Source: Pseudocercospora fijiensis CIRAD86
Taxonomy: Eukaryota; Ascomycota; Dothideomycetes; Mycosphaerellales; Mycosphaerellaceae
Direction of reading: 5' to 3'
NCBI RefSeq assembly: GCF_000340215.1
Contig: NW_006921537.1
Location: forward strand, 4,171,646-4,235,645
Length of the DNA stretch: 64,000 nt
Shown here: positions 34,900-57,989 of the stretch, in pieces
Layout of the letters: each line of letters starts with the position of its first letter
Numbering within the stretch: the first letter of the stretch is position 1
Notes under the pieces: generated by a model
What the model was told of the DNA's origin: nothing
The model's input: only the letters and a program-made list of their open reading frames with translations
The model's database searches: none
Translations under genes and position numbers: made by a program

Positions 34900-37830
34900 A
34901 AAACATACCGACCGATATTATATATATACTAGGAGCTATACTAGGAAGGGTAATAACGAGACGATAGTCGAAACGGTTTAGTATACGAGCGAGATTGCGA
35001 TAACGTCGAGAGGAGGTCGTATACTTACCTTCGAGCCTATCGAGTCCTAGACGACGATTAGGGCTAGATTTATCCTCTCCGAATCCTAGTAGTAGGAATT
35101 TATTATAGGGTACTACTACCTAGTCCTTATCTTTACGGAGTCTAAGTAGAAGGTTGTTCGGAGATATAAGAATATCGAGTATTAACCCGGAAATCTTCGA
35201 AAAGGCTAGCTAGGCGTATCTTTAAAAACCCGAGTATATAGAGCAGTTTAATTAATAGGTCTATAAGATATAGTTCCCTTTATACTTACGTTTAAAGGAG
35301 TGTAAACTCCGGAAGTACTCGATGCGATAGGGGAGTAAGGAGCGAACGGATATATTCTAGAAGTTCTTTATAGAGGGGGCATTATACCGTTATACGACTT
35401 CTCGACTTAAAGGTTAACTAGTAGTTATCTATAACTTCTACTGTTTAATCTTAAAATACCCGAAACTAGGGGATAGGAACTTATCGCCTACGAACTATCT
35501 CTATTCTAAACAGTATCGGGAATCTTAAGGAGAGAGGAGAGTTAATACAGATATAGCGTTCTAGAAAGAGGTACGTCTTCTAAAATGCCGGCTATAGCTG
35601 CCGGCTACAGATTCCGGCTACAGATTCCGGCTACTTTAATTAACCGTAGAGGTCTAGCTAATTATTATAGGCTACGCTTAAGGAAGCTCTAGGATTAAAG
35701 GCTACCGATTTCTCCCCCGAAGACTTTAAGCAACTAGTAAACGAAATGCTAGCTATAAACGGTCTTTCGGAAGACTTCTACAAAAGGGAGTCTATATAGA
35801 AGATATACCTATATCTTATAAACTACCTTTCCCTATTTCTCGGCGCGACAACCTAGTATATTATATTCGAAAAGAATAAAGAGGCTACGTTAGACGATAT
35901 TCGGGAGATCCTCCGTAATACTCGCCGAGTAGCTATTACTATCGATAGCTAGTTAAGCCGGACTATAAGAGCCTCCTTCCTCTCGATTATACTATACTTT
36001 ATTAATTCGGATTAGAAACTCTAGGAACTTATAATCGGATTCCCTAAAATTCTAGGTTCCTATACTAGTAAGGATATAGCGAAGCTTATCTATACGGTAA
36101 TAGATAGGGTTAGCGTAATAACGAAACTAATCTCGATTACTACGGATAACGCTAGTAATAATCGAATATTATATAAGGCGTTATATATACAATTTACTCG
36201 TATATGTCTTTAAAATTACTAATTGTATCGATAGGGTCGAGTATATAGAGGAGATTATAAGGTCTATAATCTAGCTTAATCTTCCGAATATTAAGCTCGC
36301 TACGATTCCGGATACGTACAATAATACGTACGATAATAACGATAAAGAGGAGCCTAGTAATAGCCCTAGCCCTATTAAATCGGAGCCGACGTCGTTGCTA
36401 GTTATATCTCTATAGAAGTTTCCCTACCTCGCTTATATAGTTTAAATCGCGATCCGAGCCCTCTTTAAGACGCTTAAAATTGTACTATTAAACGACGACT
36501 AATAGAAGATCCTAGATAAGGATAAAGTAAAGTCGAAAGTCGAGAAACTCGTTATAGTAATAAGACGGGATAAGGTAGAGAGCCTCGCTCTCGTTTTATA
36601 TAAGGTATAACTTTTGTCCGTAGCCGGTACCTATAGCCGGCAACCTAGTATAGTTCTAACTCTTTTTCTCTAGCTTCGTTGTCTAGTAATATATATAAAC
36701 TCGAGCTTATAGAGATATAACCGATTCGAGGCTATTTAAAAGAACCTAATCGAGCGCCCTAAAACCGATGCCTAGAATATCGTATAGAATAAGCGATAGT
36801 AAAAGCGGCCTCCTTAGCGCCTACTCCGTTTTACCTAAGATATTAAGACCCGGTTCGATTCGACTTTCTATATAGTTACGAGGGGATATACTTTACGTAT
36901 CGCTCTCGAGATCTATTAGAGTTCCGAGGATATTAAGTAGCTCGGCCTTACCGCCGCCGAATAGCGCTAAGTAGAGTATCTCGTCGATATTAGTAAGTAT
37001 TACGTAAAGGTTACTACTACGATTAGAAGAACCCGAGGACCGACGATCTATCTTATCTTTATATACTATAACTAGCTCTTTAACGAGCTCGAGGAAACCG
37101 TAGCTAAGCTAGCTAAGAAGAGCGTTCCCTAGAAAGTAGCTATAACGAAAGCTATAGATACCTCCTATACTAAGTTATATAAATATTATAGTACTACCTT
37201 TAAGTCGTTCGGGGATATCTATAGCGTTACGTACTTACTTAACCCGGTAGAAAAGGATATATACTAGTAGAGGCCGGAATAGAAGGCAGACGAGGTATAG
37301 CCGAAGTATTACTAGACTATTCTAGAAAAAATATTCTACGAGCGTTAGAAAGAAACTAGTCTAAATATAGCTCCTATAAAGAAAAAGAAGATTTAGAAGG
37401 CTCCGATATTATATCTATTTCGTAAATAGGAAGTAGAAGTAGAAGAGGAAGCAACTACTAAAGTAAATAAAGAAGAGTTCGATCTCTATCGGCGCGCGAG
37501 TAAGTATAAACCCGTAGGCTCGGAAAGAGGGCTAATAATCTCTAGATCTTACCGGTTTTCTAGACGAATTCGGAGACGATATTCTCGCTATATAGTAGCG
37601 GTTAGAGCCTAAGTTTCTAACGATAGCGTCGGTCGCTCGGAACGTCCTCGCTATCCCGAGCGTAGGTATAGGCTATAAAAGGTCTTTTAGTATTACTCGT
37701 TACTAGGGCCGCTTTAATCGAATATACTCGCCTACTACCTTCGAATCTATTATAGTATTCCGATACTATCTCCTCTACTAGAATCGCTAAGGTAGGTTAC
37801 TAAAGATTATACTAAAGGAGTTAATCGAGG
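34900..37830 (+). pseudogene. hAT transposase remnant (outer copy)
   Basis: The RNase H-like core is readable at about 35,920-36,165: VAITIDS*LSRTIRASFLSI, then ILYFINSD*KL*ELIIGF and ISITTDNASNN, the blocks around the first and second catalytic Asp of fungal hAT transposases. The C-terminal hAT dimerisation region follows at about 37,590-37,790 (FLTIASVARNVLAIPSVG), where the family's W-W and S-A/V-G-x-E-R motifs are blurred by stops. Other blocks between have drifted and I did not find a clear BED zinc finger. The stops are those expected from RIP at Trp and Gln. Confidence 0.88.
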
Positions 37831-38210
37831 AATTAGAAAACCTTAAGATCGAAGAAACCTAGGAGCGCGAAGAGAATACGAAATTTAGTCTAAGCGAAAC
37901 CCTAATTAGCGATAACGAAGAAAAGGAGGGTAGAGGTAGAAGGCGATACCGGGTCGAGAAGCAGAAATATATACAGGCTTAGAGCAGCTTTAAGGAGACG
38001 AAGCGTTTATATATAAGGTAATATAGCCGGCGTATATAGCCGGTATATATCCGAAATATATTTCGAATTCCTAGGACCTAATAGACCCCGTAGTAGTTCG
38101 GTTTGGTTTAGTTTAGTTTGCTAAGCCGAAGATCTAGTTTAGTTTAGGTTAGTTTGCTAAGCAACTGCAAGAGTAGCTAGTTCGAACTATAGAATTTATC
38201 GGTTTCTAAG

Positions 38211-38620
38211 AAGTATAAGAATATCTACGTAACTCGAAGCAAGCCCTTTATAAGATACGAGAGTATAGCCGGTAGCGTAGCCGGCGTTTTTTAGTTGTAG
38301 GAAGGTACTTATATAACCCTGAATCTGTAGGCAATTGGCTAAAGGCACTAACCAATCAAAAGTATACACACAGACAAGCCACTACAGTTCAGTTTGGAAA
38401 CTGCACTTATTAGAAGTGTAAGAATGTCTACGTAACTCGAAGCAAGCCCTTTATAAGATACGAGAGTATAGCCGGCAGCGTAGCCGGCATTTTTTAGTTA
38501 CAGGAAGGTACTTATGTAACCCTAAATCTATAGACAATTAGCTAAGGGCACTAACTAACTAAAAGCATACATATATATAAGCTATTATAGTTTAGTTCAG
38601 AAACTGTACTTATTAGGTAT
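38211..38620. repeat. 205-bp tandem duplication private to the inner hAT copy
   Basis: The unit starting CTACGTAACTCGAAGCAAGC occurs twice here and only once in the outer copy (about 57,270-57,480, reversed). The first unit is rich in CA (for example ACACACAGACAAGCCACTAC) while the second has those sites as TA. The two halves of one duplication therefore carry very different RIP loads. Confidence 0.8.
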
Positions 38621-39548
38621 AAATTTCATCCTTTCGCTCGCTGTTTAATTCCCTAACTGCTCGGTAGAATGTTATTATCTAGATCTAGGCAGAACTTATC
38701 GATTTCCCTAGAAGTCCTCCTCCTTAAGAAGTTCTAACACTTTCCTACCGAACTATTCGATAATATTAAGTACTAGGATAGCTCCTCCCTCGGTATCGGT
38801 ATAGTATATAAAAGAGCCACAAGGCAGCTCTATAGAACGTTCTACTAGTTACTCGCTATACTAAGGCCGAATGCTAGTTCGTTCCTTAGAACTCTTAGTT
38901 ATTTAGGAGATATAAAGGATAGGGTAGGTAGTAACTTCGTATTATATAAGGAGGTAGAGGCTGCTATAGAAGAGGCCTTTAACCTATAGAAGATAGTAAA
39001 AGATATAGAGGCAGCTACAAGTCTAGGTACCTAGTTGAATTTCTAGTAGGTAGAGTATAAGGATATTTAGAGGGAGTATTAGGTAGAGTTGCGAAGGCAG
39101 GTATATAATATGCTCTAGAAAACAGGGATAGTGCCTATAACTATAACTATTAGGCTCTTCAACCTTCCTTATTTTTCCCTGTTTTCTTTTTATAAAAATC
39201 TAAACTAATACAAATCAACCGGAATGTCTATCTTCTTTTAGTTCTTTGAAAAACCTAGTAGCGTAGCTAGTAGCGTAGCCGGCAGCGTAGCCGGCCTTTT
39301 TACTCCTTAGTACTAACGGGATTTTAGGAGACTTCTATTCCGTACGGCTAATAAAGCATACTATACTATATATATATACTTAGAGAGTATTTAGAGCGCG
39401 GTATATAGCGCCGTATAACAGCGGCTTATTTCGTATATAGAAAAGCTTATAGATAACACTACGAATATCCTTCCTACTAGAATATCTATCCTACCTAGTA
39501 CCGTCCCGAATATAGACATTCTAGCCTTTTAGAATCTAATCGAGTGCT

Positions 39549-40200
39549 TTGAAATCCTTATCTATAATCGTTATATGCTTCGCGTAGATAGCTATAAGGT
39601 TAACCGCTAAAATAGTATTAGTATAGTCCGAAAAGAGGTAGAAGAGAAATATATATTCGAAGATACGAACTAGGTAGGCTTCTATAGCCTCTTAAAGGGC
39701 GCCTATCGCGGAGGCTTAGAAGCGAAGGTCCGTTCTATAATCCTAGGCAATTTCGCGAATAAGTCGTTAGAAAGGAGCTTTACGGATTAGGAGCTAAGAA
39801 ATCTTCTAATACTACCGAATCTTACGGAGGGCTACGGCTAAAGAAGGATTAGTAAAAAGATAGTAAGAATGCCGGCTACGCTACCGGCTATACTACCGGC
39901 TACGCTACCGGCTATAAATAGGACTTACTTCCTAGGCGCTATCGACGCTTCGTACGATTGCTACTAGTAGCAGAAGCGCTAGTTATCGTCTTACGTAAAG
40001 CCTTACCCGCCGTTATCTTACGCGGAGCCTTACTCGCGACGCCCTTTCTAGTACCGGAGCTAGCGGCAGTAGTAGTAGCCCTCTTACGTTAATGTACTAT
40101 ACTCGTTCTACTATTTCCGGTCTTATTACGACCCGTAGAAGCACTAGGTCCCTTCTTGCGAGGCGTCGTAACTTAGTTAAGTAGACTCGCTATTATAAAA
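39549..40200 (-). pseudogene. Histone H3-like gene 1 in the inner hAT copy
   Basis: This is the better preserved copy. The minus strand gives a basic tail (about 40,200-39,940), then a GCCGG-repeat spacer, then the fold from 39,835: LRKIR*Y*KIS*LLIRKAPF, RLIREIA*DYRTDLRF, ASAIGAL*EAIEAYLVRIFE. About 60 bp with a TACTAAT branch-like site and a TTTTAG acceptor come next, followed by NLIAIYAKHITIIDKDFQ. The last block is the H3 alpha3 segment NLCAIHAKRVTIMPKDIQ, so the 60 bp are most simply an intron whose GT donor was lost. Loop 1 has no insertion, so it resembles canonical H3 more than CenH3. Confidence 0.88.
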
Positions 40201-40734
40201 GTCGTCGAATTGAGGAAAAAAGTACGTTACGAAGGTATACGAAGGCGCGCGCGGAGCGAGGGTATTACGGAGGTAGTAGATATAGAGCGTAGAGGTATAG
40301 GTATCGATGCGAAGGTTGAATATAGCGGTAGTGTCGCGGTATCGCTAGGTAATAGAGTAAGCTTCGCGTAAGCCTATATTATAGTAACGTTAGAGCAAGG
40401 AAAGAAGGCAGGCACGGCTAAAAAAGGCAGGTACGGCTAAAAAAGGCAGGTACGGCAGACTTTGAAATATAGCCGGCATATATAGCCGGTATAGTAATAG
40501 GCGAAAGCCTCCTTTTAATAAATAGCCGGCGTAATAATAGTATCCTACTATAGTATAGATATTCTTTAGTAATGCCTTTACTAGCTATAGTAATCTTATA
40601 AGTAACCTAGGCCTATTGCTAGTAAATATAAGAAATATTAGATAGGCTATACTAAACAAGCTAGTTATTTAGTAAGAAAAGGCCTACTACGGTCTCTATA
40701 TACCGGCTACGAGTACCGGCTATTGCTCTAAATT

Positions 40735-41459
40735 CAACTCCGCCCTATCTCGGAGGCTAAGGTACCGAGCGGAAACCCTATAGCTTATATTTACTCGGTT
40801 GTCGCGGAGCGCTTATAGGTAAGGTATTAGAAAAGAGTATAAAAAGTACGAGAAGAGTATCCTAGGATATAGGTCGTAAGTGAATAAGAGTAGTACGCCT
40901 AGTTATTTATATAGTACGTTACTCTATACGACTAAGAGCCTATATTATCTTATACTTCGCTTATAAGACCTCGACTCTACTAGTATACTATCGATCTCCT
41001 CCTCGGTCGCTAATACGCTATCTTAATTCTTCTTCGAGTTGCCGGACTTAGTACGCATCTATAGCTATATAATAGCGCTACGTATTATAGAGAATTAACT
41101 CCGCCGTATCTCGAAGGCTAAGGTACCGAGCGGAAATCCTATAGCTTATATTTACTCGGTTATCGCGGAGCGATTATAGGTAAGGTATTAGAAAAGAGTA
41201 TAAAAAGTACGAGAAGAGCATCCTAGGATATAGGTCGTAAGTAAATAAGAGTAGTACGCCTAGTTATTTATATAGTACGTTACTCTATACGACTAAGAGC
41301 CTATATTATCTTATACTTCGCTTATAAGACCTCGACTCTACTAGTATACTATCGATCTCTTCCTCGGTCGCTAATACGCTATCTTAATTCTTCTTCGAGT
41401 TGCCGGACTTAGTACGCATCTATAGCTATATAATAACGCTACGTATTATAGAGAATTTC
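40735..41459. repeat. Tandem ~360-bp duplication in the hAT element (inner copy)
   Basis: Direct units at about 40,735-41,097 and 41,098-41,459 are nearly identical to each other and, in reverse complement, to the pair at 49,494-50,222. Confidence 0.85.
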
Positions 41460-41851
41460 TCGTTAAAGTTTCTCTCTCGTAGGCTTGCTATCTGCCTCGT
41501 AGTATAGAGGATCAAAGTGCTAATACTAAAGAATCTCCTTATAGTTAGGATACTAGGGCTCCTTAGGACCTTTATATTTTAGGTCTAAATAGAAACGTAT
41601 TATAAACGTTCTATCGCCCTTTCGCTTACTATCCGCTAGGTCGCGATATACGAAGAAACTAATCTAAATATAGCTCGTCTCTATAATAGCCGGGTAAATA
41701 TAGAGCGCTAGGTTTCTACTTCGTACCTTAGATTTAGGGACGGCGCGGAGATAAAATTAGAAATATAGCCGGCACCTATAGCCGGCAAAAGGATACGAAA
41801 ATAGGCCTCCTCCTAGATTAATCTAACGACTAAATACAATTTCTAACTAAT

Positions 41852-42330
41852 CCGCTATAAACCGACGCCGAATTTTAGCTAGAAGCTATATATCTTTATT
41901 TTAAAGAGTAACCCGCTTTATATAGATAGTAAGAAGGTTTAAAAGCTTAAGCTCGGTTACGAGAAATGCCTCCGTAGCTTCCTAAAGAGTACTAATCGCC
42001 TTAGCCGTAAATCGTATACTAGACCGAAAATCTAATATAATTTCTCGGACGAGTCGCTAGAAGGGAGTCTTAGGGATTAAAAGCTCGGTCCCTCTTTTAT
42101 TTTAGAAAAGCCGGATCTAGCGAAGGGTAATAGTACCTAGTTTAAAGCGCCGCTTCTTTATCGTCGAATCCTACCTTATTCCCTTTTTTTTAATAGAAAG
42201 ATAACTTTTCTTCGCGATAGCCTTCGTCCGTCTACTCTTTTTAGCCTTCTTCTATCTACCTAAAGCCTTCTTATTTTTCGGTACTATTTTCCGAGGAATC
42301 CCCTTCCTTCGTATATACTATAGAGAGCCT
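41852..42330 (-). pseudogene. Histone H3-like gene 2 in the inner hAT copy
   Basis: This is the minus-strand counterpart of the gene at 48,590-49,110, with the fold at about 42,146-41,852. It keeps the same blocks (F-K-L, RLVREI, IRFTAKAI, the K-R/RVTL region) and the same Lys/Arg-rich N-terminal tail. Because the two copies were mutated separately, agreement between them shows that the histone reading is not a chance frame. Confidence 0.82.
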
Positions 42331-42979
42331 TAGTCTTCCGATATCTCGTTCTCGCTACGGTCTCCTTATACTTAGCTTACTTTACCTTTGCCCTTTAGCC
42401 TCTAAAGATATTTATCTACGCGTTTAGGCGACGAGGGTATATCGGTAGGACCTAGAAAATTAATAAGTATATAATCGTAAAGAGATATTAATACTTCTTG
42501 CCTTCTAGAACAAATAGTCTTCTATTAAACCGCCTTAGTAGGTTATCGTTAGATTCGTATAAAGGATAGTAGCTTAAGGAAGGGGAGGTAACCGGCTTAG
42601 GAAGGCCCGAAGAGCCGAATCCTTAAGGTATATTTGTCTTTAAGAATATAGGGAAAGGGAAGAAGGAGAGGAAGAGCGAATAGAGAATTAGAAATAGTCC
42701 GTAGATAAGCGGGGTCGGTTGCTATAGCAACTAGTCTGTTTAGGTCCTAGGAATTCGAAACACATTTCGGATATATACCGGCTATATACGCCGGCTATAT
42801 TAGCTTATATATAAACGCTTCGTCTCCTTAAAGCTACTCTAAGTCTATATACGTTTCCGCTTCTCGATCCGGTATCGCCTTCTACCTCCGCCCTCTTCCT
42901 CTTCGTTATCGCTAATTAGGGTTTCGCTTAGACTAAATTTCGTATTCTCTTCGCGCTCCTAGGTTTCTTCGATCTTAAG

Positions 42980-45920
42980 GTTTTCTAATTCCTCGATTAA
43001 CTCCTTTAGTATAATCTTTAGTAACCTACCTTAGCGATTCTAGTAGAGGAGATAGTATCGGAATACTATAATAGATTCGAAGGTAGTAGGCGAGTATATT
43101 CGATTAAAGCGGCCCTAGTAACGAGCGATACTAAAAGACCTCTTATAGCCTATACCTATACTCGGGATAGCGAGGACGTCCCGAGCGACCGACGCTATCG
43201 TTAGAAACTTAGGCTCTAACCGCTACTATATAGCGAGAATATCGTCTCCGAATTCGTCTAGAAGACCGGTAAGATTTAGAGATTATTAGCCCTCTTTCTA
43301 AGCCTACGGGTTTATACTTACTCGCGCGCCAATAGAGATCGAACTCTTCTTTATTTACTTTAGTAGTTACTTCCTCTTCTACTTCTACTTCCTATTTACG
43401 AAATAGATATAATATCGGAGCCTTCTAAATCTTCTTTTTCTTTATAGGAGCTATATTTAGACTAGTTTCTTTCTAACGCTCGTAGAATATTTTTTCTAGA
43501 ATAGTCTAATAATGCTTCGGCTATACCTCGTCTGCCTTCTATTCCGGCCTCTACTAGTATATATCCTTTTCTACCGGATTAAGTAAGTACGTAACGCTAT
43601 AGATATCCCCGAACGACTTAAAGGTAGCACTATAATATTTATATAACTTAGTATAGGAAGTGTCTATAGCTTTCGTTATAGCTACTTTCTAGGGAACGCT
43701 CTTCTTAGCTAGCTTAGCTACGGTTTCCTCGAGCTCGTTAAAGAGCTAGTTATAGTACGTAAAGATAAGGTAGATCGTCGGTCCTCGGGTTCTTCTAATC
43801 GTAGTAGTAACCTTCGCGTAATACTTACTAATATCGACGAGATACTCTACTTAGCGCTATTCGGCGGCGGTAAGGCCGAGCTATTTAATATCCTCGGAAC
43901 TCTAATAGATCTCGAGAGCGGTACGTAAAGTATATCCCCTCGTAACTATATAGAAAGTCGAATCGAACCGGGTCTTAACGTTTTAGGTAAAACGGAGTAG
44001 GCGCTAAGGAGGCCGCTTTTACTATCGCTTATTCTATACGATATTCTAGGTATCGGTTTTAGGGCGCTCGATTAGGTTCTTTTAAATAGCCTCGAATCGG
44101 TTATATCTCTAGAAGCTCGAGTTCGTATATATTACTAGACGACGAAGCTAGAGAAAAAGAGTTAGAACTATACTAGGTTGCCGGCTATAGGTACTAGCTA
44201 CGGACAAAAGTTATACCTTATATAAAACGAAAGCGAGGCTCTCTACCTTATCCCGTCTTATTACTATAACGAGTTTCTCGACTTTCGACTTTACTTTATC
44301 CTTATCTAGGATCTTCTATTAGTCGTCGGTTAATAGTATAATTTTAAGCGTCTTAAAGAGGGCTCGGATCGCGATTTAAACTATATAAGCGAGGTAGGGA
44401 AACTTCTATAGGGATATAACTAGTATCGACGTCGGCTCCGATTTAATAGGGCTAGGGCTATTACTAGGCTCCTCTTTATCGTTATTATCGTACGTATTAT
44501 CGTACGTATCCGAATCGTAGCGAGCTTAATATTCGGAAGATTAAGCTAGATTATAGACCTTATAATCTCCTCTACGTACTCGACCCTATCGATACAATTA
44601 GTAATTTTAAAGATATATACGAGTAAATTGTATATACAACGCCTTATATAATATTCGATTATTACTAGCGTTGTCCGTAGTAATCGAGATCAGTTTCGTT
44701 ATTACGCTAACCCTATCTATTACCGTATAGACAAGCTTCGCTATATCCTTACTAGTATAGGAACCTAGAATTTTAGGGAATCCGATTATAAGTTCCTAGA
44801 GTTTCTAATCCGAATTAATAAAGTATAGTATAATCGAGAGGAAGGAGGCTCTTATAGTCCGGCTTAACTAGCTATCGATAGTAATAGCTACTCGGCGAGT
44901 ATTACGGAGGATCTCCCGAATGTCGTCTAACGTAGCCTCTTTATTCTTTTCGAATATAATACGCTAGATTATCGCGCCGAGAAATAGGGGAGGGTAGTTT
45001 ATAAGATATAGGTATATCTTCTATATAGACTCCCTTTTATAGAAGTCTTCCGGAAGACCGTTTATAGCTAGCATTTCGTTTGCTAGTTACTTAAAGTCTT
45101 CGAGGGAGAAATCGGTAGCCTTTAATCCTAGAGCTTCCTTAAGCGTAGCCTATAATAATTAGCTAGACCTCTACGGTTAATTTAAGTAGCCGGAATCTAT
45201 AGCCGGAATCTGTAGCCGGTAGCTATAGCCGGCAGCTATAGCCGGTAGCTATAGCCGGCAGCTATAGCCGGTAGCTATAGCCGGCATTTTAGAAGACGTA
45301 CCTCTTTCTAGAACGCTATATCTATATTAACTTTCCTCTATCTTTAAGATTCCCGATACTGTTTAGAATAGAGATAGTTCGTAGGCGATAAGTTCCTATT
45401 CCCTAGTTTCGGGCATTTTAAGATTAAACCGTAGAAGTTGTAGATAATTACTAGTTAACCTTTAAGTCGAGAAGTCGTATAACGGTATAATGCCCCCTCT
45501 ATAAAGAACTTCTAGAATATATCCGTTCGCTCCTTATTCCCCTATCGCATCGAGTACTTCCGGAGTTTATACTCCTTTAAACGTAAGTATAAAGGGAACT
45601 ATATCTTATAGACCTATTAATTAAACTGCTCTATATACTCGGGTTTTTAAAGATACGCCTAGCTAGCCTTTTCGAAGATTTCCGGGTTAATACTCGATAT
45701 TCTTATATCTCCGAACAACCTTCTGCTTAGACTCCGTAAAGGTAAGGACTAGGTAGTAGTACCCTATAATAAATTCCTACTACTAGGATTCGGAGAGGAT
45801 AAATCTAGCCCTAATCGTCGTCTAGGACTCGATAGGCTCGAAGGTAAGTATACGACCTCCTCTCGACGTTATCGCAATCTCGCTCGTATACTAGACCGTT
45901 TCGACTATCGTCTCGTTATT
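42980..45920 (-). pseudogene. hAT transposase remnant (inner copy)
   Basis: The reverse complement is collinear with the outer transposase. The T-T-D-N-A-S-N-N block lies near 44,650-44,680, the first-Asp block near 44,870-44,900 and the dimerisation block near 43,090-43,240. The two copies differ mainly by transitions, so they could be compared to date and polarise RIP. Confidence 0.85.
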
Positions 45921-48589
45921 ACCCTTCCTAGTATAGCTCCTAGTATATATATAATGTCGGTCGGTATATTTTAAGGTTTCGTACGGTAAGGTAAGGACTT
46001 AGGAGTAGTAGATGTATACTAGTAGCTATAGGGATATACCCTTTCTTTTATAGTATCGTATCGTTAGGAATAGCTAGGTAGTAAATAGCTAGCTACCTTC
46101 TTTTTTGTTTCCTAGCTGCCTAACTACTAGATTTTTTTTTCCTAGCTACCCTAGCTAGCCTAACTACTAGAATTTCTTTCCTAGCTACCCTAACTACCTG
46201 AATTTCGCCTTCTATACGGCGGCTCTTTCCTACTAACGGAACCGAGCTACTATACCTAACGAATCTAAGCTCGTTTTTAGTCTTAATCTATTATCTTTCG
46301 GTATAAGACACTCGATAAACAAATACTTAGGCCGAGTCTAACTACGAAACCTAAGACTAACTAATAGCTCTATTAACTAATCCTAATCCTCGAACTCCTT
46401 CCGCTTCCTAGTAAAGACCTTAAAGAGCGCTCGAGCTTCTTCGGATACCTACGGAGTAGTCGAGATAAAGCCGTATCGCTAAAATAGGTAATCCTTCGGA
46501 GGCTTATATAGAGATTTAGAGAATTCTAACGCTAACCTATCCTACTAGTAGCTTAGATTCCGGATATAAGCCCTCTCTATCTTAGTAAAGATTTTATATA
46601 GTAGTAGTACTCTGCCTTCGAGAAACGCTTTCTATTTAACTATTAGTATCTACCGGCTACGAACGCCGGCTATATATGCCGAGTATAGAATAATTACCTG
46701 TACCCCTTCCTCCTATAGTAATACTTCTACCGTCCCTAGATACCTAGCCCCGATCGTATTAATCGTAAGCTACTTTGCCTTTATAGACGTAAAGGCTTCG
46801 CTCTAATACTAATAAAGAAACTTCTACTCTATATCGAGGATATAAAGACGACTAGTCTCAATTCTAATCCTTACTAGCTTTTCGTAGTAGCTTTAACTAT
46901 AATTTTCTAGATTGATAGGACTTATACCTTAGCCCTTTACTAGTATCTCGTCTCTTTAACTATACTCGATCTACTCCTAGCGCTTATCGTCTATAGCGTT
47001 AGGCCCTAAGACTATACCTGTTACTAGATCGATATATAGTATCTCCTCGCTTTTTTCAGTTCCTTTATTCGTAGTATTAAGCTCTATCGCGGCATCCTAA
47101 ACTCTAGTATTATTGTTCTCGACTATCTAAATATCTCCGTTACTATCGGTCGTATCGATAGAGGTAGCGGCTATAGGTCTAAATGCTATTAGTTAACGTA
47201 TTAAAGAAAAATATACCGGCTACAGCTACCGGCTACGGCTGCCGGCTACAGCTACTAGCTACGGCCGCTAGCTAGATTGACTTACGCTACTAGAACTTTA
47301 CGCTCGAAAACTAGCCGCAATTCTTTCCTCCTCTTAGCCTTCTCTTAGGTTGTCTTCTTATTCTAACCTTTACTTTTTTCTATAGGCGCTAGCTATCGAT
47401 AGAATGCCTTATTCCGCGCCTTTCTTCTCTTATCCTTAGCTCTTTTATCCTTATCTATCTTATCCTTTCTCTCGCGGTCTCGTACGGAATTCTTCTTCGT
47501 AGAGTACTCCTCTTTAGTCTTACGCTTTTTGGTTAGACGCTTAGGTAAAACAAACTCGCGGTCTTTAGTTCTATCTTCTATTTAGCGCGCGGCGCGCTTC
47601 TCTCTTGCTATTATAAGGGAAAGGGGCGGGGGCGTAGCGTATAGTAGTTATTATCGGTATAGATATAGAGGAAGAAGTTAAAAGTATAAGAATATCGCGA
47701 AGCCCTAATTGTTGCCGCCTACGTAACGTTATATAGGTAAGCTTTCGTAACTATAGTAACTACGCCCCGGCAATAGCAACTACGCCCTAGCAACGGTAAC
47801 TGCGCCCTAGCAACGGCAACCACGCCCTAGCAACGGTAATAAAGCGTAGTAAATACAACTTAGTAACTATTATAGCCGGCAATCGTAGCCGGCAGTCGAA
47901 TAAGAGTGTCTTTATAGCAAAACTACGCCCTAGCAACGGTAACTACGCCCTAGCAACGGCAACTACGCCCTAGTAACGGCAAAAGAGCGTAGTAAATGTA
48001 ATAGAGTTACTATTATAGCCGGCAATCGTAGCCGGTAGTCGAATAAGAGTGTCCTTATAGTAAAACTAATATAGTCTCTAGTTTAAACTAGGAATCTATA
48101 TAGTTCGAAAAAACTAAACTAGAACTAGGGAGCTAGTTCGCCGCTAAGAAACTAAACTATATACGTTTAGTAGTTCGGAAACCGAACTACTACGGGGTCT
48201 AGGACCTAAATAGACTAGTTGCTATAGCAACCGACCCCGCTTACCTACGGACTATTTCTAATTCTCTATTCGCTCTTCCTCTCCTTCTTTCCTTTCCCTA
48301 TATTCTTAAAGATAAATATACCTTAAGGATTCGGCTCTTCGGGCCTTCCTAAGCCGGCTACCTCCCCTTCCTTAAGCTACTATCCTTTATACGAATCTAA
48401 CGATAACCTACTAAGGCGATTTAATAGAAGACTATTTATTCTAGAAGGTAAGAAGTATTAATATCTCTTTACGATTATATACTTATTAATTTTCTAGGTC
48501 CTACCGATATACCCTCGTCGCCTAAACGCGTAGATAAATATCTTTAGAGGCTAAAGGGCAAAGGTAAAGTAAGCTAAGTATAAGGAGAC

Positions 48590-49110
48590 CGTAGCGAGAA
48601 CGAGATATCGGAAGACTAAGGCTCTCTATAGTATATACGAAGGAAGGGGATTCCTCGGAAAATAGTACCGAAAAATAAGAAGGCTTTAGGTAGATAGAAG
48701 AAGGCTAAAAAGAGTAGACGGACGAAGGCTATCGCGAAGAAAAGTTATCTTTCTATTAAAAAAAAGGGAATAAGGTAGGACTCGATAATAAAGAAGCGGC
48801 GCTTTAAACTAGATACTATTACCCTTCGCTAGATCCGGCTTTTCTAAAACAAAAGAGGGACCGAGCTTTTAATCCCTAAGACTCCCTTCTAGCGACTCGT
48901 CCGAGAAATTATATTAGATTTTCGGTCTAGTATACGATTTACGGCTAAGGCGATTAGTACTCTTTAGGAAGCTATAGAGGCATTTCTCGTAACCGAGCTT
49001 AAGCTTTTAAACCTCCTTACTATCTATACGAAGCGGGTTACTCTTTAAAATAAAGATATATAGCTTCTAGCTAAAATTCGGCGTCGGTTTATAGCGGATT
49101 AGTTAGAAAT
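48590..49110 (+). pseudogene. Histone H3-like gene 2 in the outer hAT copy
   Basis: After a Lys/Arg-rich tail (PRKIVPKNKKALGR*KKAKKS, then RRTKAIAKKS), the plus frame from about 48,797 reads KKRRFKLDTITLR*IRLF, then TELLIPKTPF*RLVREI, FRSSIRFTAKAISTL*EAIE, AFLV, and finally IYTKRVTL*NKDI*LLAKIR. These are the H3 blocks RYRPGTVALREIRRYQ, the alpha1 LPFQRLVREI, the alpha2 [20 protein letters not shown] and the alpha3 HAKRVTIMPKDIQLARRIR, in order and at the right spacing. Each stop in these blocks replaces a Gln. No intron is needed within the fold. The frame continues past the fold for roughly 100 codons with no domain I can name. The inner copy has the same gene at 41,852-42,330. Confidence 0.85.
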
Positions 49111-49493
49111 TGTATTTAGTCGTTAGATTAACCTAGGAGGAGGCCTATTTTCGTATCCTTTTGCCGGCTGTAGGTACCGGCTATATTTCTGATTTTATCT
49201 CCGCGCCGTCCCTAAATCTAAGGTACGAAGTAGAAACCTAGCGCTCTATATTTATCCGGCTATTATAGAGACGAGCTATATTTAGATTAGTTTCTTCGTA
49301 TATCGCGACCTAGCGGGCAGTAAGCGAAAGGGCGATAGAACGTTTATAATACGTCTCTATTTAGACCTAAAATATAAAGGTCCTAAGGAGCCCTAGTATC
49401 CTAACTATAAGGAGATTCTTTAGTATTAGTACTTTAATCCTCTATACTACGAGGTAGATAGTAAGCCTACGAGAGAGAAACTTTAACGAGAAA

Positions 49494-50222
49494 TTCTCTA
49501 TAATACGTAGCGCTATTATATAGCTATAGATACGTACTAAGTCCGGCAACTCGAAGAAGAATTAAGATAGCGTATTAGCGACCGAGGAAGAGATCGATAG
49601 TATACTAGTAGAGTCGAGGTCTTATAAGCGAAGTATAAGATAATATAGGCTCTTAGTCGTATAGAGTAACGTACTATATAAATAACTAGGCGTACTACTC
49701 TTATTTACTTACGACCTATATCCTAGGATACTCTTCTCGTACTTTTTATACTCTTTTCTAATACCTTACCTATAATCGCGCCGCGACAACCGAGTAAATA
49801 TGAGCTATAGGATTTCCGCTTAGTACCTTAGCCTTCGAGATACGGCGGAGTTAATTCTCTATAATACGTGGCGTAGCTAGCGCTATTGTATAGCTACAGA
49901 TACGTACTAAGTCCGGCAACTCGAAGAAGAATCAAGACAGCGTATTAGCGACCGAGGAGGAGATCGATAGTATACTAGTAGAGTCGAGGTCTTATAAGCG
50001 AAGTACGAGATAATATAGGCTCTTAGTCGTATAGAGTAACGTACTATATAAATAACTAGGCGTACTACTCTTATTTACTTACGACCTATATCCTAGGATA
50101 CTCTTCTCGTACTTTTTATACTCTTTTCTAATACCTTACCTATAAGCGCTCCGCGATAACCGAGTAAATATAAGCTATAGAGTTTCCGCTCGGTACCTTA
50201 GCCTCTAAGATAGGGCGGAGTT
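49494..50222. repeat. Tandem ~360-bp duplication in the hAT element (outer copy)
   Basis: Two direct units (about 49,494-49,855 and 49,856-50,222) each contain TACGTACTAAGTCCGGCAAC and a readable E/R-rich stretch (RQLEEEL then R-I-S-D-R-G-R-D-R, with stops shown as Q). The inner copy has the same pair at 40,735-41,459, so the duplication predates the two insertions. It begins about 380 bp after H3-like gene 2. Confidence 0.85.
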
Positions 50223-50529
50223 AAATTTAGAGCTATAGCCGGCACTCGTAGCCGGTATATAGAGACGGTAGCAGGCCTTTTCCTACTAAATAACTAGCTT
50301 GTTTAGTATAGCCTACCTAATATTTCTTACATTTACTAGCAATAGGCCTAGGTTACTTATAAGATTACTATAGCTAGTAAAGGCATTACTAAAGAATATC
50401 TATACTATAGTAGGATACTATTATTACGCCGGCTATTTATTAAAAGGAGGCTTTCGCCTATTACTATACCGGCTATATATACCGGCTATATATAACGATA
50501 TCAAAAAGCGTGATAGTAGCGAACAATTA

Positions 50530-51700
50530 GAGACGAAGGGAAGATAGTTAAGAAGGAAGGGAGGACGAATAGAAAGCACTATATATTAGGGCAGAGGAGG
50601 TACTAAAGGTAGAAGATAGAAGAACCCCTAAGAGGGCATATAGGATAATGATTTCAGAACTCCTTAGAGGACTGAAAGCAATCTATAACTAGGCAAGCCA
50701 CGTAATTATAAAGGTAGCTAATATAGTCGTAGCAAAGATTACGAGGAAACAATAGGAGACAAGCCTAAACTACTACACCTAGGTAGTAGTAGCTAGTTAG
50801 GAGGCGCTAAAACCTCCGAGGACAGTAGTTCGAGTCTATATTACGGACCTATAGGAGCAAAAGGAAATCTAAGGACTTATAGGGAAAGAGATTATAGAAA
50901 GAATTATAGTTAAAGAGGTAATTAGGGCTAGGAACGAAGGTAAAGGGGTAATCAAGCTGTTTATAGCACAAGAGTAGGACAAAAAGAAGCTAGAAATATA
51001 AAAAGAATAGATAACTAAGATAGGGAAAACAGCAAAGGTCTCCTAATAGCAATTTATAATTATAGCCTATAGTATAATAAGAAGCTTTAAGGAAGAACGG
51101 GATATTAAGAGCCTATAGAGATAAAACCAAGCTATATACCTAGGCCTAAAGATTACAAAAGTGGTATAGATTAAAAGGAAAATCGAAGAGACTAAGAAGC
51201 AGTCTTCCCTAATTATCTAGGTAGGGAGTATAGAGTAGGCTAATATAGTGCTAGACTAGGGGTTGTTCTAGGACTTTAAAAGATTAGAAACAGAGATACA
51301 CAGAAGCAACTATAGGATAATGCAGTGCTTTAAATGTTAACACTATAGATACTTAGCAGCTAAATATATAAAGACAACCAACACCTACTCCTATTGTATA
51401 GGGGAGTACTAGGTCAAAGAATGCAAAGCATATAAGGGAGAAGTAAGATATATATACTATACTAAAAGATACCCCTCTTAGGCGAAGGAATGCCTAGTAA
51501 GAATATAGGCAGCTAGGAAAGCAAAGGAAGCTAGAATCAACATACTAAAAAGATACACAACAAGCTAGGGTAGCTAGGTACAGAAGTAACCTAGCTAAGT
51601 GCTATAAAAGAGGTCTAGGCAAGATAATAGGTTCACATTCAGGGCCTTACTAGCATAAGAGAGTTACTAGCAACTAGGGAGACTAAGATACCTTAATATT
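50530..51700 (+). pseudogene. LINE L2 ORF1 remnant with CCHC zinc knuckles
   Basis: At 51,326-51,367 the frame reads C-F-K-C-*-H-Y-R-Y-L-A-A-K-Y, spacing CX2CX4HX4C with the His and the last Cys changed to Tyr by CpA/TpG transitions. A second knuckle follows (Y-C-I-G-E-Y-*-V-K-E-C-K, about 51,390-51,425). Such nucleic-acid-binding ORF1 proteins are standard in Tad/I-clade LINEs. The stretch from 50,580 to 51,300 is a charged, coiled-coil-like region in pieces. Confidence 0.75.
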
Positions 51701-51839
51701 GCAGGAAAGGAAGCAGGGTAGACAAAGCTTAGTCAAATGTTAGTCTAAAGTAAGGGAAGACTAAAGGAAAACTTATAGGGAAATGATATAGATAAAACCT
51801 AATAAACATTGCAATATTACTAAACATTATACAGTACAA

Positions 51840-54800
51840 TATTAATAAGAGCAAAGACAAGGTATAGAGGAGCTTCCTTTAAGTACTGAACCTAAAAGAA
51901 CATTACATTATTGCAATCTAAGAGCCCTAGCTTAACCTATATATAAAGAGACTAGCAACAGTTAAAGACCTAAGATACTACCTAATTATCTATAACTAGG
52001 GAGCCCTAAGGACATACATCTATATTAGTAAGGAGATAGATATAGAAACCTAGTAGGCTATACTATAGGAGGATAGGGACCTAATATTAGTTTAAGTAGA
52101 GACATCCTAAGGTACACTCTAAGTCTACTATATATATAACCTACTACTAGACTTAAGAAGCAGTACCTAACTGAAAACCCTAGAAAGACTACCTAGAGTT
52201 ATCTAGGGGAACACCTACTAAATCCTAATTAGGGATTTCAACCTCTACTACCCCCTCTAAGGCTTAGACTTTACCCTAGCTTACTACTTCCTAGTAGGAA
52301 GACTAATTAACATATTAGAGAGGGAAGGAATAGAAATTGTTACCCTAAAGGGACTAATTATATAGGAGGTAAGAGGAAGCAGTAGTATACTAGACCTATA
52401 CTTTATATTATATCAGATTAGGAATAGGATTATAAGATATAGGGTCAACTAGGAACTAGAAGAATCATTAGACCACTTCCCGGTATAGATTGAGCTGAAT
52501 ATCTAAGCTAATTAGGAAAGGGAACTAGAGGAGAAGCTTAACTAGAAAGGTACCTAATAGGGCAGGATTAGGGAGGAACTAGAAAGGGACCCAAAACTAG
52601 AGGAACTCTTAACAAAGTACCTACTAAGGCTAGAGGACATTAATAAGGCAGTAGAAGAACTAATAGGAATCCTAAAATAGGTAGCTAGAAAGTATACCCT
52701 AGTAAAGAAACATTCACTATACTAGCAACTATACTAGACTAGTAAGTATATAAGGAAGGTTAAAGTAGTAAGGAAGGCTAGGAGACAGTAGATACAAACC
52801 TATACCTAGGAAGTATAGGACAACTATAATAAAGCCTACTAGGAAAAGAAGATCTAGATTAAGAAAGACAAGATATAGGAATAGAGATCTATAATAGGAA
52901 TAATTACAAAGAAACTAGAGGAGATATAGAGGATAGCTAAATAGGTAAGGAGACCTAAATAGGAGAAGGATATACTACTATAATTCCCGGATATTATAGA
53001 CCAATAAGGACAAATATAGACTATAATAGAAGGGAAAGCAAGAGCCCTAGGCTACTACTTCTTCTATAGAGAAGTATAAGCAGACCTATTAGATATAAAG
53101 GAGAAAGAACAAGAGACTCTACTACTAGGTACACTAAGAGATACCTAGGTTAAACCCGAAACCATTAAAAGGATCCTAAAGAAAATTCTAGGCAATAAGG
53201 TACTAGGAGAAGACAAGATCTACAACAAACTCCTAAAAGCATATAGGAAGGGGCTAGCCCTAGTACTAGCTAATATCTTTTTACAAAGCCTAGCACTAGG
53301 ATACTACCTAAGACTATTTAGGAAGTCCCTAATAGTAGTGCTAAGGAAGCCCTAGAAGGAAGACTATATATAGCTTAAGGCCTATAGACTAATAGCCCTA
53401 CTTAATATAATAGGCAAGGTGCTAGAAAAAATTATCGCTAAAAGGCTAACAACCTTTACCGAGGAAAGGAATATCCTTCTTAAAGACTAGATAGGAGGAA
53501 GAAAGAAGAGGTCAACACTAACAGCTATAGAACTAATTATAGAACAGATTAAGCATATCTAGCACTATAGTCAAAACTAGGTAGTAACCCTCCTCTCCCT
53601 TAACATCTTAGGAGCCTTTAACAATATCTCCTATAAAAGGCTCCTATATATACTTAAATAGAAAGCTATACTAAACTAGATAGTCCAATTTATCTAGTCC
53701 TTCCTATAGGAAAGATTAATACAGCTTATTCTAGGCAAATTCAAATCAGACCTAATACTAACTAAAAAGGGAATCCCTTAAGGATCAACACTCTCCCTAA
53801 TCCTCTTCCTTATCTTTATAGTAGACCTACTCCTACTCCTAGAATCAAAAAACACATTAGCATTAGGGTTTATAGATAATACAAACATCCTAGCCTAGTC
53901 TAAGACAATAGAAACCAACTATAAGATCCTAGAAGAAAAGCACTAAGAGTATAAAAAATAGGTAAGGAGGTATAGAGCAAAATTCGCCCTAGAAAAGTAC
54001 TAGCTTATCTACTTTAGCAAGGCTAAATCAACCTATAATATAAAGCAATCAATTACTATCTAAGGCTTTAAAACCTAACTATTAGTAGAGCTTAGGGTAC
54101 TAGGGATCTAGCTAGATCTAAAACTAAATTAGGGACTATAAGTAAAGAAGGCAAAGCAGAGGGTAGATGCTAATATGCAATCTATTAATAGGCTTATAGC
54201 CTCTATATAGGGGGCTATATTCGAGAAAGCTAAAGTTATATACAAAGCAATTATTAAGCTAGTAATGCTATATAGAGCATAGATATAGACAGCTTAGGAG
54301 AAAACACTAAAGAGGATTAAGCAACTAGTTAGCAGGTCCTAAACCTAAAGCCTAAAGAAAATCCTAGGAGCATATAAAACTATACTAATAAGGGTAGTAG
54401 AAATAGAATTAGGGATCCCACTAGTTAAACAATACTTTAAGGGACTAAGACACTAATATATAGCAAAGATAATGGAATACCTAGCCTAATAGACTATTTA
54501 AAAGGCACTAGACAAGATAAAAGCCTAGTGCATTAGGACTAGGAGGCGAGACAGACTATAAATAACTCCCTAGAAAGTTAAAGACCTAGAGTAATATAGA
54601 GTCTTAATAAGAGAAATACTAGAGAAAGAGCTTTAGGGACTAAATATAAGGCTAAAGGAAGACAAGCTAAAGGGAGAGAAACAAAGCCTAGTAGAATCAA
54701 TTACTAGACACCTATAAGAGCAGGAATAGAACAAAACACAAGTCAGACTAGGAACCCTAAAGGCACTAATCAAATTCGGTTAATATAACTACTAGCTCTA

Positions 54801-54950
54801 TAAGGACCTAAATAGGGCCGAGGCAAGCCTAGCTATCTAAATTAGATCTAAATATATTAGACTCAGATCTTACCTATTTAGAAGAAACGTCCTAGGAATT
54901 AAAAGCAGAGCTTACTAATATAGCTACTAATCTTAGAACCCTAAGTATAT
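51840..54950 (+). pseudogene. LINE L2 ORF2 remnant: APE endonuclease and reverse transcriptase
   Basis: Near 52,230 the frame reads IRDFNLYYPL, the G-D-F-N-x-H-H-P endonuclease block with RIP changes. Near 53,768 it reads KKGIP*GSTLSLILFL, and at 53,869-53,880 F-I-D-N, the RT catalytic F-x-D-D with both changes explained by TpG to TpA. A C-terminal Cys-containing block (LVCP at about 54,958) fits the family tail. Stops are frequent. Copy L1 is the same gene in reverse. Confidence 0.85.
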
Positions 54951-55649
54951 ACTACTAGTCTGCCCTTAATAGTTAGAAGGCAGAAGTAATTAGAGACTAA
55001 AAGCAATAGAAAGGGAATACGACAAGCTAATCTAGAGCAAAGAAGACCTAAAGAGGATAGTAAAGTAGATTATTAAATAGGGATTTATATAACAATTCGC
55101 ACTAATAAGGGAAACTAAGGAGTAGATAAGAAGGAGGGAAGAAGAGGGGGAAAGAAGGGCAGGGTAGTAGGCAAGGTAGTTAAAGGGTAACAACTATAAT
55201 ACTAGTACACCCTAGAGGAAGGAAAACAAGGAAACGAGGAAGAACAACACTTATAAATAGGATAGGAGGGAGGTTTTTACCAACTAAGTTAGTTTCCTAC
55301 CTAAAACAATACATAGAAACAGACCTACATAGGCCGAAAGGCACTACAACAGGCAAATGAAATATCTATCTATCTATCTATATATACCGGCTATATTTCA
55401 AAGTTTGCCGTATCTGCCTTTTTTAGCCGTGCCTGCCTTTTTTAGCCGCACCTGCCTTCTTTCCTTACTCTAACGTTACTATAATATAGGCTTGCGCGAC
55501 GCTTACTCTATTGCCTAGCGATACCGCGATACTACCTCTCTCGCTATATTTAACCTTCGTATCGATACCTATACCTCTACGCTCTATATCTACTACCTCC
55601 GTAATACCCTCGCTCCGTACGCGCCTTCGTATACCTTCGTAACGTACTT

Positions 55650-56340
55650 TTTTCCTTAATTCGACTACTTTCGTAATACCGAGTCTACTTAACTAAGTTA
55701 CGACGCCTCGTAAGAAGGGACCTACTACTTCTACGGGTTATAATAAGACCGGAAATAGTAGAACGAGTATAGTGTATTAACGTAAGAAGGCTACTACTAC
55801 TACCGCTAGCTCTAGTACTAGAAAGGGCGTCGCGAGTAAGGCTCCGCGTAAGACAACGGCGGGCAAGGCTCTACGTAAGACGATAACTAGCGCTTCTACT
55901 ACTAGTAGCAATAATCGTACAAAGCGTCGATAGCGCCTAGGAAGTAAGTCCTATTTATAGCCGGTAGCGTAGCCGGTAGCGTAGCCGGTAGCGTAGCCGG
56001 TATTCTTACTATCTTTTTACTAATCCTTCTTTAGCCGTAGCCCTCCGTAAGATTCGGAAGTATTAGAAGAGTTCTAACCTCCTAATCTATAAAGCTCCTT
56101 TCTAACGACTTATTCGCGAAATTGCCTAGGATTATAGAACGGACCTTCGCTTCTAAGCCTCCGTAATAGGCGCCCTTTAACAGGCTATAGAAGCCTACCT
56201 AGTTCGTATAAACGAATATATATTTCTCTTCTACCTCTTTTCGGACTATACTAATACTATTTTAGCGGATTAACCTTATAGTTATCTACGCTAAGTATAT
56301 ATCCATCATAGGCAAGGCTTTTAAAGCACTCGATTAGATT
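55650..56340 (+). pseudogene. Histone H3-like gene 1 in the outer hAT copy
   Basis: A basic Ser/Thr-rich tail is open from about 55,688 to 55,935 and includes KGVASKAPRKTTAGKALRKT, close in style to the H3 tail. A spacer with four GTAGCCG-type repeats follows. The fold from 56,037 then reads VALRKIRKY*KSSNLLIYKA, PF*RLIREIA*DYRTDLRF, ASVIGAL**AIEAYLV, all diagnostic H3 sequence with stops at Gln positions. The alpha3 part lies after an intron-like insertion. It is shifted by one inserted base relative to the inner copy and reads N-L-I-V-I-Y-A-K. The tail, spacer and fold order matches an intron-containing H3 gene. Confidence 0.87.
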
Positions 56341-57989
56341 CTAAAAGGCTAGAATATCTATATTCGAGATAGTACTAGATAGGATAGATATTCTAGTAGG
56401 AAGGATATTCGTAGTATCGTCTATAAGCTTTTCTATATACGAAATAAGCCGCTATTATACGGCGCTATATACCGCGCTCTAAATACTCTCTAAGTATATA
56501 TATATAGTATAGTATACTTTATTAGCCGTACGGAATAGAAGTCTTCGAAAATCCCGTTAGTACTAAGGAGTTAAAAGGCCGGCTACGCTACCGGCTACGC
56601 TACCGGCTACGCTACCGGCTACGCTACCGGCTACGCTGCTAGGTTTTTTAAAGAACTAAAAGAAGATAGACATTCCGGTTAATTTGTATTAGTTTAGATT
56701 TTTATAAAAAGAAAATAGGGAAAAATAAGGAAGGTTAAAGAGCCTAATGCTTATAGTTATAGGCATTATCCCTGTTTTCTAGACTATATTATATACCTAC
56801 CTTCGCAACTCTACCTAATACTCCCTCTAAATATCCTTATACTCTACCTACTAGAAATTCAACTAGGTACCTAGACCTATAGCTACCTCTATATCTTTTA
56901 CTATCTTCTATAGGTTAAAGGACTCCTCTATAGCAGCCTCTACCTCCTTATATAATACGAAGTTACTGCCTGCCCTATCCTTAATATCTCCTAAATAACT
57001 AAGAGTTCTAAGGAACGAACTAGTATTTAGCCTTAGTATAGCGAGTAACTAGTAGAACGTTCTATAGAGCTACCTTATAGCTCTTTTATATACTATACCG
57101 ATACCGAGGGAGGAGCTATCCTAGTACTTAATATTAGAGAATAGTTTAGTTAGAAAGTGTTAGAACTTCTTAAAGAGGGCTTCTAGGGAAATCGATAAGT
57201 TCTGCCTAGATCTAGATAATAATATTCTACCGAGTAGTTAGGGAATTAAACAGCGAGCGAAAGGATAAAATTCATACCTAATAAGTATAGTTTCTAAACT
57301 AAACTATAATAGCTTATATATATATATGCTTTTAATTAGTTAGTGCCCTTAGCTAATTATCTATAGATTTAGGGTTATATAAGTACCTTCCTATAACTAA
57401 AAAATGCCGGCTACGCTACCGGCTATACTCTCGTATCTTATAAAGGGCTTGCTTCGAGTTACGTAGACATTCTTACACTTCTTAGAAACCGATAAATTCT
57501 ATAGTTCGAACTAGCTAATCCTATAGTTGCTTAGCAAACCAACCTAAACCAAACTAGATCTTCGGCTTAGCAAACTAAACTAAACTAACCCGAACTACTA
57601 CGGGGTCTACTAATTCTTATCTAAATTACAAACTTTCTATATACTATTATAGCTGTTAATTAGGCAAACAACCTTATATAATATCTTTATATATAGTAGG
57701 TATATAGTAGTATTATTAGAGGGGGTAGGGTTATAGGTAAATCTAGCTCGAAGTATATATAGGGACTTAGCGGAGAACGCTAAACCTCCGAGATATAGCC
57801 GTTCTCTCTCTATCGGCTACTACCTCTATTACTAGTACTCGGACTACTTCGGAAATAGTCGATTAAGCTTAGAAGCCGTCTATTCTATACTATACTAATT
57901 TAAGCCCTCCGAGCTCTTACTATTATCGTCCGAGTAGTCCGGTTCCGGCCGCTAGAGGTACTCCTATAAATTTAGAGGGGCTAAATCGC

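What the first reader, a model, noticed from the sequence alone, without database searches (positions are those of the whole stretch)
38082..57609. A ~10-kb hAT transposon carrying two distinct histone H3-like genes
Seen: downstream of a hAT transposase, both copies of the element contain two separate frames with H3 histone-fold blocks in the right order and spacing. Gene 1 is at 39,549-40,200 (-) and 55,650-56,340 (+). It has LRKIR, RLIREIA, DYRTDLRF, ASAIGAL, EAIEAYLV and NLIAIYAKHITIIDKDFQ. Gene 2 is at 41,852-42,330 (-) and 48,590-49,110 (+). It has the FKLDTITLR and IRLF blocks, RLVREI, FRSSIRFTAKAISTL, KRVTL, KDI and LLAKIR. Both have Lys/Arg-rich tails, and the stops fall at Gln codons as RIP predicts. 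Known: hAT elements normally carry only a transposase. Inference: the element captured or evolved H3 paralogues that may have altered local chromatin (escape from silencing, target choice or packaging). I know of no described transposon with H3 cargo.
Basis: partly seen in the sequence, partly recalled or inferred. Interest (0 to 1): 0.96.

Follow-up and report, generated by a model that had tools for sequence, protein, structure and literature searches.

The report
Jumping gene carrying two histones
Two nested, mutation-riddled copies of a jumping gene each carry two different histone H3-like genes; this transposon family is already published for what is likely the same fungus, but one of its histone genes holds two predicted introns, which argues that this gene was likely not copied from spliced messenger RNA as had been proposed.

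Summary
Two hAT-like elements are nested in opposite orientation (inner 38082-48201, outer 32725-57609), each with matching 20-bp termini and perfect 8-bp target duplications. Each carries two H3 histone folds, all four over the Pfam cut-off with stops masked. Dhillon et al. 2019 (PMC6710886) report this family in Pseudocercospora fijiensis, very likely this genome; PMC3538342 (2013) reports an H3-like gene with ESTs on another hAT. What I add: the two H3 genes are separate lineages, both present in all four subfamilies sampled. Gene 1 has two predicted introns, one very likely the published 16-residue insertion, so transcript capture fits gene 1 badly. Indels shared between copies are multiples of three in 8 of 8 coding cases and 3 of 9 outside; 10 of 13 fold stops in the window's inner copy lie where host H3 has Gln. 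Gene 1 exons carry about 2-4 times the background transversions. Transversion dN/dS shows purifying selection only in a 17-codon exon, so a function for the element is unproven. No scored copy of either gene was free of stops.

The parts
38082..48201 (.). Inner hAT-like element, 10,120 bp; transposase region, gene 2 and gene 1 all on the minus strand
   Evidence: Identical 20-bp termini at 38082-38101 (+) and 48182-48201 (-)
38074..38081 (+). Left 8-bp target duplication of the inner element
   Evidence: Same 8 bases at 48202-48209
48202..48209 (+). Right 8-bp target duplication of the inner element
32725..57609 (.). Outer hAT-like element in opposite orientation, split by the inner element and by a 4.9-kb repeat
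   Evidence: Termini 32725-32744 (+) and 57590-57609 (-), 8-bp duplications 32717-32724 and 57610-57617
50518..55385 (.). 4.87-kb repeat nested in the outer element (second copy 27449-32315)
   Evidence: 95% identical inverted pair
43079..43255 (-). hAT dimerisation-like stretch of the inner transposase region
   Evidence: Dimer_Tnp_hAT 15.3 bits, E 0.017, below its 21.4-bit cut-off
41850..42395 (-). Gene 2 (inner): long Lys/Arg-rich tail plus H3 fold, one frame, predicted intronless; start codon not identified
   Evidence: PF00125 74.5 bits
48554..49099 (+). Gene 2 (outer)
   Evidence: PF00125 74.1 bits
39929..40136 (-). Gene 1 (inner), tail exon with KAPRK-type repeats; start codon not identified
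   Evidence: 7 of 7 distinct indels in this exon across 22 rows are multiples of three
39838..39928 (-). Gene 1 (inner), predicted intron A, 91 nt, with a minisatellite inside
   Evidence: GTAAGT donor in 22 of 22 rows, branch-like motif, TAG acceptor; it resolves the frame change between tail and fold
39655..39837 (-). Gene 1 (inner), fold exon A
   Evidence: PF00125 60.2 bits
39607..39654 (-). Gene 1 (inner), predicted intron B, 48 nt, very likely the published 16-residue insertion
   Evidence: Donor intact in 6 of 22 rows, altered in 16 (this copy included); branch-like motif and acceptor
39551..39606 (-). Gene 1 (inner), fold exon B
   Evidence: NLIAIYAK...IIDKDF
55733..56322 (+). Gene 1 (outer): tail exon, predicted intron A 55944-56034, fold exon A, predicted intron B 56218-56265, fold exon B with a 1-bp insertion
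   Evidence: PF00125 54.1 bits

Best explanation
These are two nested copies of the published, high-copy H3-carrying hAT-type transposon of what is likely Pseudocercospora fijiensis, each with two different H3-like genes that were likely translated once and would have put altered H3 into chromatin to weaken silencing of the element, until mutations, likely repeat-induced (RIP), left stop codons in every scored copy. Shown: structure, family size, the two H3 folds, their separate lineages, and both genes in the four subfamilies sampled. Predicted from sequence: two introns in gene 1. Inferred: that the frames were translated before RIP. Untested: that the proteins entered nucleosomes and that this helped the element (my probability for that last step about 0.35; for former translation about 0.7; for the identity of the element about 0.97).
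For: Termini, 8-bp target duplications and nesting. Four PF00125 hits. Every gene 1 match listed (150 scored of 787 candidates) holds at least four stops; of the PF00125 matches listed (150 scored of 772) only two hold none, the host H3 exon and an exon that I read as the host CenH3. Gene 2 rows from all four subfamilies form one clade, 100/99, apart from gene 1 and host H3 (60 columns, bootstrap not settled). 20 of 20 fetched ~10-kb loci carry both genes. Indels shared by two or more rows: 8 of 8 in coding parts are multiples of three, 3 of 9 in intron A and the gene 2 3' flank (hypergeometric by hand about 0.007). Stops at host Gln positions 5 of 6 and 5 of 7. Fold exon B of gene 1 (17 codons): non-synonymous transversions 0 to 0.5 against 1 to 3 synonymous ones, ratio 0 to 0.07 in 12 pairs, while both off-frame controls show none synonymous. 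Host H3 against gene 1 fold A: transversions 7, 3, 13 by codon position, p 0.017. Another hAT, in P. tritici-repentis, carries an H3-like gene with ESTs (PMC3538342); PMC6710886 finds no similarity between the two elements.
Against: Elsewhere the transversion-based dN/dS between subfamilies is about 1 and noisy (gene 2 fold 0.17-2.23, gene 2 tail 0.31-1.15, gene 1 fold A 0.44-1.76, gene 1 tail 0.71-2.06; off-frame controls 0.48-2.63 where defined). Host H3 against gene 2 gives 19, 14, 22, p 0.26. Of 9 distinct gene 2 indels 5 are not multiples of three, each in a single row. Two single-row frame-breaking indels lie at the edges of the gene 1 fold exons: 11 bp in L019 and 1 bp in the outer window copy. 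In-frame TGA is absent but also rare in the other frames, so that test is uninformative. Gene 1 tail indels are partly repeat-unit changes, which favours multiples of three, and some intron A indels are alignment effects of its minisatellite. No expression data.
Confidence: 0.5

Rival explanations
1. Passive passengers: host H3 sequence was caught once as a transcript and multiplied by the transposon without any role, then decayed (the published reading).
For: PMC6710886 Results and Discussion. Transversion dN/dS near 1 between subfamilies outside fold exon B. All scored element copies are dead.
Against: Two separate H3 lineages instead of one; two predicted introns in gene 1; shared coding indels 8 of 8 in frame; both genes kept in the four subfamilies sampled.
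Confidence: 0.4
2. Diversifying H3 decoy: gene 1 evolved fast under selection to escape or compete with a host silencing factor.
For: Gene 1 exons have more transversions than background in six of six comparisons, from 25/411 v 107/5467 to 44/442 v 244/4664 (p 5e-11 to 0.0016), while 7 of 7 tail indels keep the frame.
Against: Synonymous transversions are raised too, so gene conversion with divergent copies fits as well. The six comparisons share sequences. The stretch downstream of gene 1 is as fast in L009 and L011 (18/180 each), and intron A is 5/69 in L015. Fold exon B is conserved in amino acids.
Confidence: 0.2
3. The two H3 genes are a duplication inside the element of one captured H3.
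For: Same strand, same element, and a 64-67% local cross-match of gene 1 to the gene 2 place in two loci, L010 and L013.
Against: Gene 1 (40/60 identical) is closer to host H3 than to gene 2 (32/60); gene 2 clade split 100/99; different predicted intron content.
Confidence: 0.15

Closest known systems
H3-carrying hAT family of Pseudocercospora fijiensis and five other Mycosphaerellaceae (Dhillon et al. 2019, PMC6710886; abstract, Results and Discussion read)
   Same: 8-bp target duplication, 20-bp termini, one or two H3-like copies per element with a 16-residue length difference, RIP damage, host H3 on scaffold 6 (contig 6 here), 784 H3-like copies (772 and 787 first-look candidates)
   Different: They infer one captured, intronless transcript and a 16-residue insertion, and treat the two H3 stretches as copies; here they are two lineages, gene 1 has two predicted introns, and the insertion is very likely a 48-nt intron. 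Length given as 9.5-9.9 kb against 10,120 bp here
H3L-bearing hAT of Pyrenophora tritici-repentis (G3 2013, PMC3538342; passages and part 1 of 2 of one section read)
   Same: hAT element with an H3-like gene with a variant tail and fold that is neither H3 nor CenH3
DNA transposons of fungi that carry TET/JBP dioxygenases (PMC12730594; passages only)
   Same: Transposons, hAT included, carrying a gene that could counter silencing
   Different: An enzyme acting on DNA methylation, not a histone; no histone cargo in the passages seen

Membership tests
hAT superfamily | 8-bp target site duplication | tested here: met
   Perfect for both elements
hAT superfamily | Short terminal inverted repeats | tested here: met
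   20 bp, both elements; 195 + 191 exact matches to a 23-base terminal pattern in the genome, 0 control
hAT superfamily | Transposase with hAT dimerisation domain | tested here: inconclusive
   15.3 bits against a cut-off of 21.4; 47 matches elsewhere in the genome, none in the window; no PDB relative of a 606-residue masked stretch at E 1
P. fijiensis H3-hAT family | Element of about 9.5-9.9 kb with one or two H3-like stretches, one longer by 16 residues | tested here: met
   10,120 bp (slightly longer), two H3 stretches, gene 1 with 48 extra nt
P. fijiensis H3-hAT family | DUF659 in the transposase | tested here: inconclusive
   No Pfam match in the two masked transposase stretches given (E up to 1); 21 DUF659 matches elsewhere in the genome, none in the window
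P. fijiensis H3-hAT family | Terminal sequence identical to the published one | not tested
   The published letters are in a figure that is not held
Histone H3 | H3 histone fold | tested here: met
   PF00125 and PDB H3 matches
CenH3 | Groups with the host CenH3 | tested here: inconclusive
   An exon pair that I read as the host CenH3 (L029) shows no supported grouping with gene 1; gene 2 is split from it by the 100/99 branch

The most novel reading that the evidence does not exclude
A transposon lineage carried two H3 variants of its own as working proteins, one long-tailed (gene 2) and one with fast-evolving tail and fold (gene 1), that entered host chromatin and blunted silencing of the element in an arms race, until RIP ended it.
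Probability: 0.3. Interest if true: 0.85.

Novelty: already known. Interest (0 to 1): 0.38.

Why it matters
The element and its H3 cargo are published, so the headline is not new. The refinement matters for one open point: whether transposon-borne histones are dead passengers or former tools of the element. Predicted introns, two lineages and frame-keeping indels weigh against a single transcript capture, and the fast change of gene 1 is a testable lead in the Pyrenophora element, where intact H3L copies are reported.

Tried and rejected
Homologue searches: a masked gene 2 copy gave 2 matches among 6 candidates; profiles of masked copies gave thousands of H3s (4268 of 7989 scored, 7902 of 7998 scored; one listed each). 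By name and identity I saw no listed protein that is clearly an intact relative specific to gene 1 or gene 2; P0142 (Peltula) is the one lead. Selection by transversion dN/dS: inconclusive except in fold exon B. TGA count as a sign of non-RIP stops: uninformative. DUF659 and Dimer_Tnp_hAT in the own genome: 21 and 47 matches, none in the window. PDB search for the transposase: nothing at E 1. The idea that the 16-residue insertion is coding was set aside because donor, branch-like and acceptor motifs frame exactly 48 nt and the donor survives in 6 of 22 rows. No structure was predicted: the stretches contain stops and the fold is clear from sequence. Rows: the gene 2 alignment has 29 rows but 26 distinct places (L002/L021, L003/L009 and L004/L022 overlap); gene 1 has 22 distinct rows; matches under 400 aligned bases were dropped before alignment.
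Full report
What is there. The window lies on contig 6 of a 73.9-Mb, 30-contig genome. AT-rich, RIP-like stretches (about 34-40% G+C, TpA/ApT 1.8-2.0) alternate with gene-rich DNA. Between 32.7 and 57.6 kb, self-comparison shows two elements nested in opposite orientation. The inner one spans 38082-48201 (10,120 bp), the outer 32725-57609; both end in the same 20-bp inverted repeats and have perfect 8-bp target duplications. A 4.87-kb repeat interrupts the outer copy.

The H3 genes. On the coding strand the order is transposase region, gene 2, a tandem-repeat stretch, gene 1. With X at stops, PF00125 scores 74.5/74.1 bits for gene 2 and 60.2/54.1 bits for gene 1, and the nearest solved structures are H3s. 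Gene 2 reads in one frame, with a tail (RTKAIAKKS in the window, RTKTIAKKS in several other copies) that resembles ARTKQTARKS of H3, and a 2-residue insertion before the first long helix. Gene 1 has a tail with SKAPRK...TAGKALRK repeats that recalls the K9-K27 stretch of H3, in a different frame from its fold. These tail likenesses are my reading; no call scored them.

Introns. In gene 1 the frame change falls on a 91-nt stretch (in the window copies) with a GTAAGT donor in 22 of 22 rows, a branch-like CTAAT or CTAGT motif and a TAG acceptor. It begins one codon 3' of the second intron of the host H3 gene as I read it. A second stretch of exactly 48 nt lies where host H3 has no intron; its donor is intact in 6 of 22 rows and altered in 16, with a branch-like motif and a TTTTAG acceptor. 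Its length and place correspond to the 16-residue insertion reported by Dhillon et al.. Both introns are predictions; no transcript was available.

Family and subfamilies. PF00125 gave 772 first-look candidates, 150 scored; of the matches listed only two lack stops, the host H3 exon (L001) and an exon that I read as the host CenH3. A gene 1 query gave 787 candidates, 150 scored, and each listed match has at least four stops. By identity to the window gene 2, fetched copies fall into four groups: I 94-98%, II 89% (L015, L016), III 89% (L024 alone), IV 79-80% (L009-L013). Of 20 fetched ~10-kb loci, chosen because they hold a PF00125 hit, 20 hold both genes.

Lineages. Gene 2 rows of all four groups form one clade (100/99) apart from gene 1 and host H3s on 60 columns; 13 of 17 inner branches are drawn open and the bootstrap had not settled. 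Identities: gene 1 to host H3 40/60, gene 2 to host H3 43/87, gene 1 to gene 2 32/60, stops counted as differences. So gene 2 is not a recent copy of gene 1, and both were present before the groups split.

Were they coding before RIP? For: stops at host Gln positions 5/6 and 5/7; indels shared by at least two rows 8 of 8 multiples of three in coding parts against 3 of 9 in intron A and the gene 2 3' flank; no shared indel in the gene 1 fold exons in 22 rows; fold exon B with hardly any non-synonymous transversion (17 codons); third-position excess between host H3 and gene 1 fold A (p 0.017). Against or neutral: transversion dN/dS between groups near 1 with wide scatter in the other parts and off-frame controls in the same range; no third-position excess for gene 2 (p 0.26); five single-row frame-breaking indels in gene 2 and two at the edges of gene 1 fold exons (11 bp in L019, 1 bp in the outer window copy), which fit decay after death but do not prove it; TGA test uninformative. 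I put former translation at about 0.7.

Fast change of gene 1. Its exons carry more transversions than the rest of the element in six of six comparisons (L015 25/411 v 107/5467; L016 36/412 v 116/5391; L024 35/411 v 26/682, without transposase region; L009 46/443 v 228/4658; L011 42/443 v 151/2969; L013 44/442 v 244/4664), while the gene 2 fold does not differ from background in any of the six. The stretch downstream of gene 1 is as fast in L009 and L011 (18/180 each). Synonymous transversions are raised as well, so diversifying selection and gene conversion from divergent copies are both open.

What is known. Dhillon et al. 2019 (PMC6710886; abstract, Results and Discussion read) report in P. 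fijiensis 784 H3-like copies in 471 hAT elements, 99 complete ones with 20-bp termini and 8-bp duplications, the original H3 on scaffold 6, RIP of all copies but the original, and the same in five related species; they infer capture of a transcript. PMC3538342 (passages and part 1 of 2 of one section) reports an H3-like gene on a hAT in P. tritici-repentis with ESTs. In the listings of five paper searches and the sections read I saw no report of two H3 lineages or of introns in these elements; the library lacks most subscription journals.

Verdict. The added points (two lineages, predicted introns, in-frame shared indels, fast gene 1) refine the published model and favour former coding function without proving it.

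Noticed in passing
27449-32315 and 50518-55385: A 4.87-kb repeat pair, 95% alike, with strong CpG depletion (0.2) while the other repeat stretches measured have CpG above 1.2; longest stop-to-stop frame wholly inside the first copy is 61 aa. A different mutation history or a CpG-targeting process.
   Followed up: partly
39551-40136 (gene 1 exons): Gene 1 exons change faster between subfamilies than the transposase region and the gene 2 fold.
   Followed up: partly
40736-41396 and 49508-50177: 300-nt tandem duplication between the two H3 genes, 96-97% alike within a copy.
   Followed up: no
10466-11096 and 14691-15321: 631-bp, 99.4% identical duplication abutting a 100-base N run (14591-14690); possibly an assembly artefact.
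   Followed up: no
2613-8670: Two tandem 3-kb repeats, 82% alike, with a frame at 2802-3245 that looks like a reverse transcriptase; that label is recalled, not tested.
   Followed up: no
P0142 (Peltula sp., returned; sequence): A lichen-fungus H3 with an insertion at the same place as intron B and some residues shared with gene 1 but not host H3 (KAPF, ASAIGAL); may be an unspliced intron or a relative. No supported grouping in the tree.
   Followed up: partly
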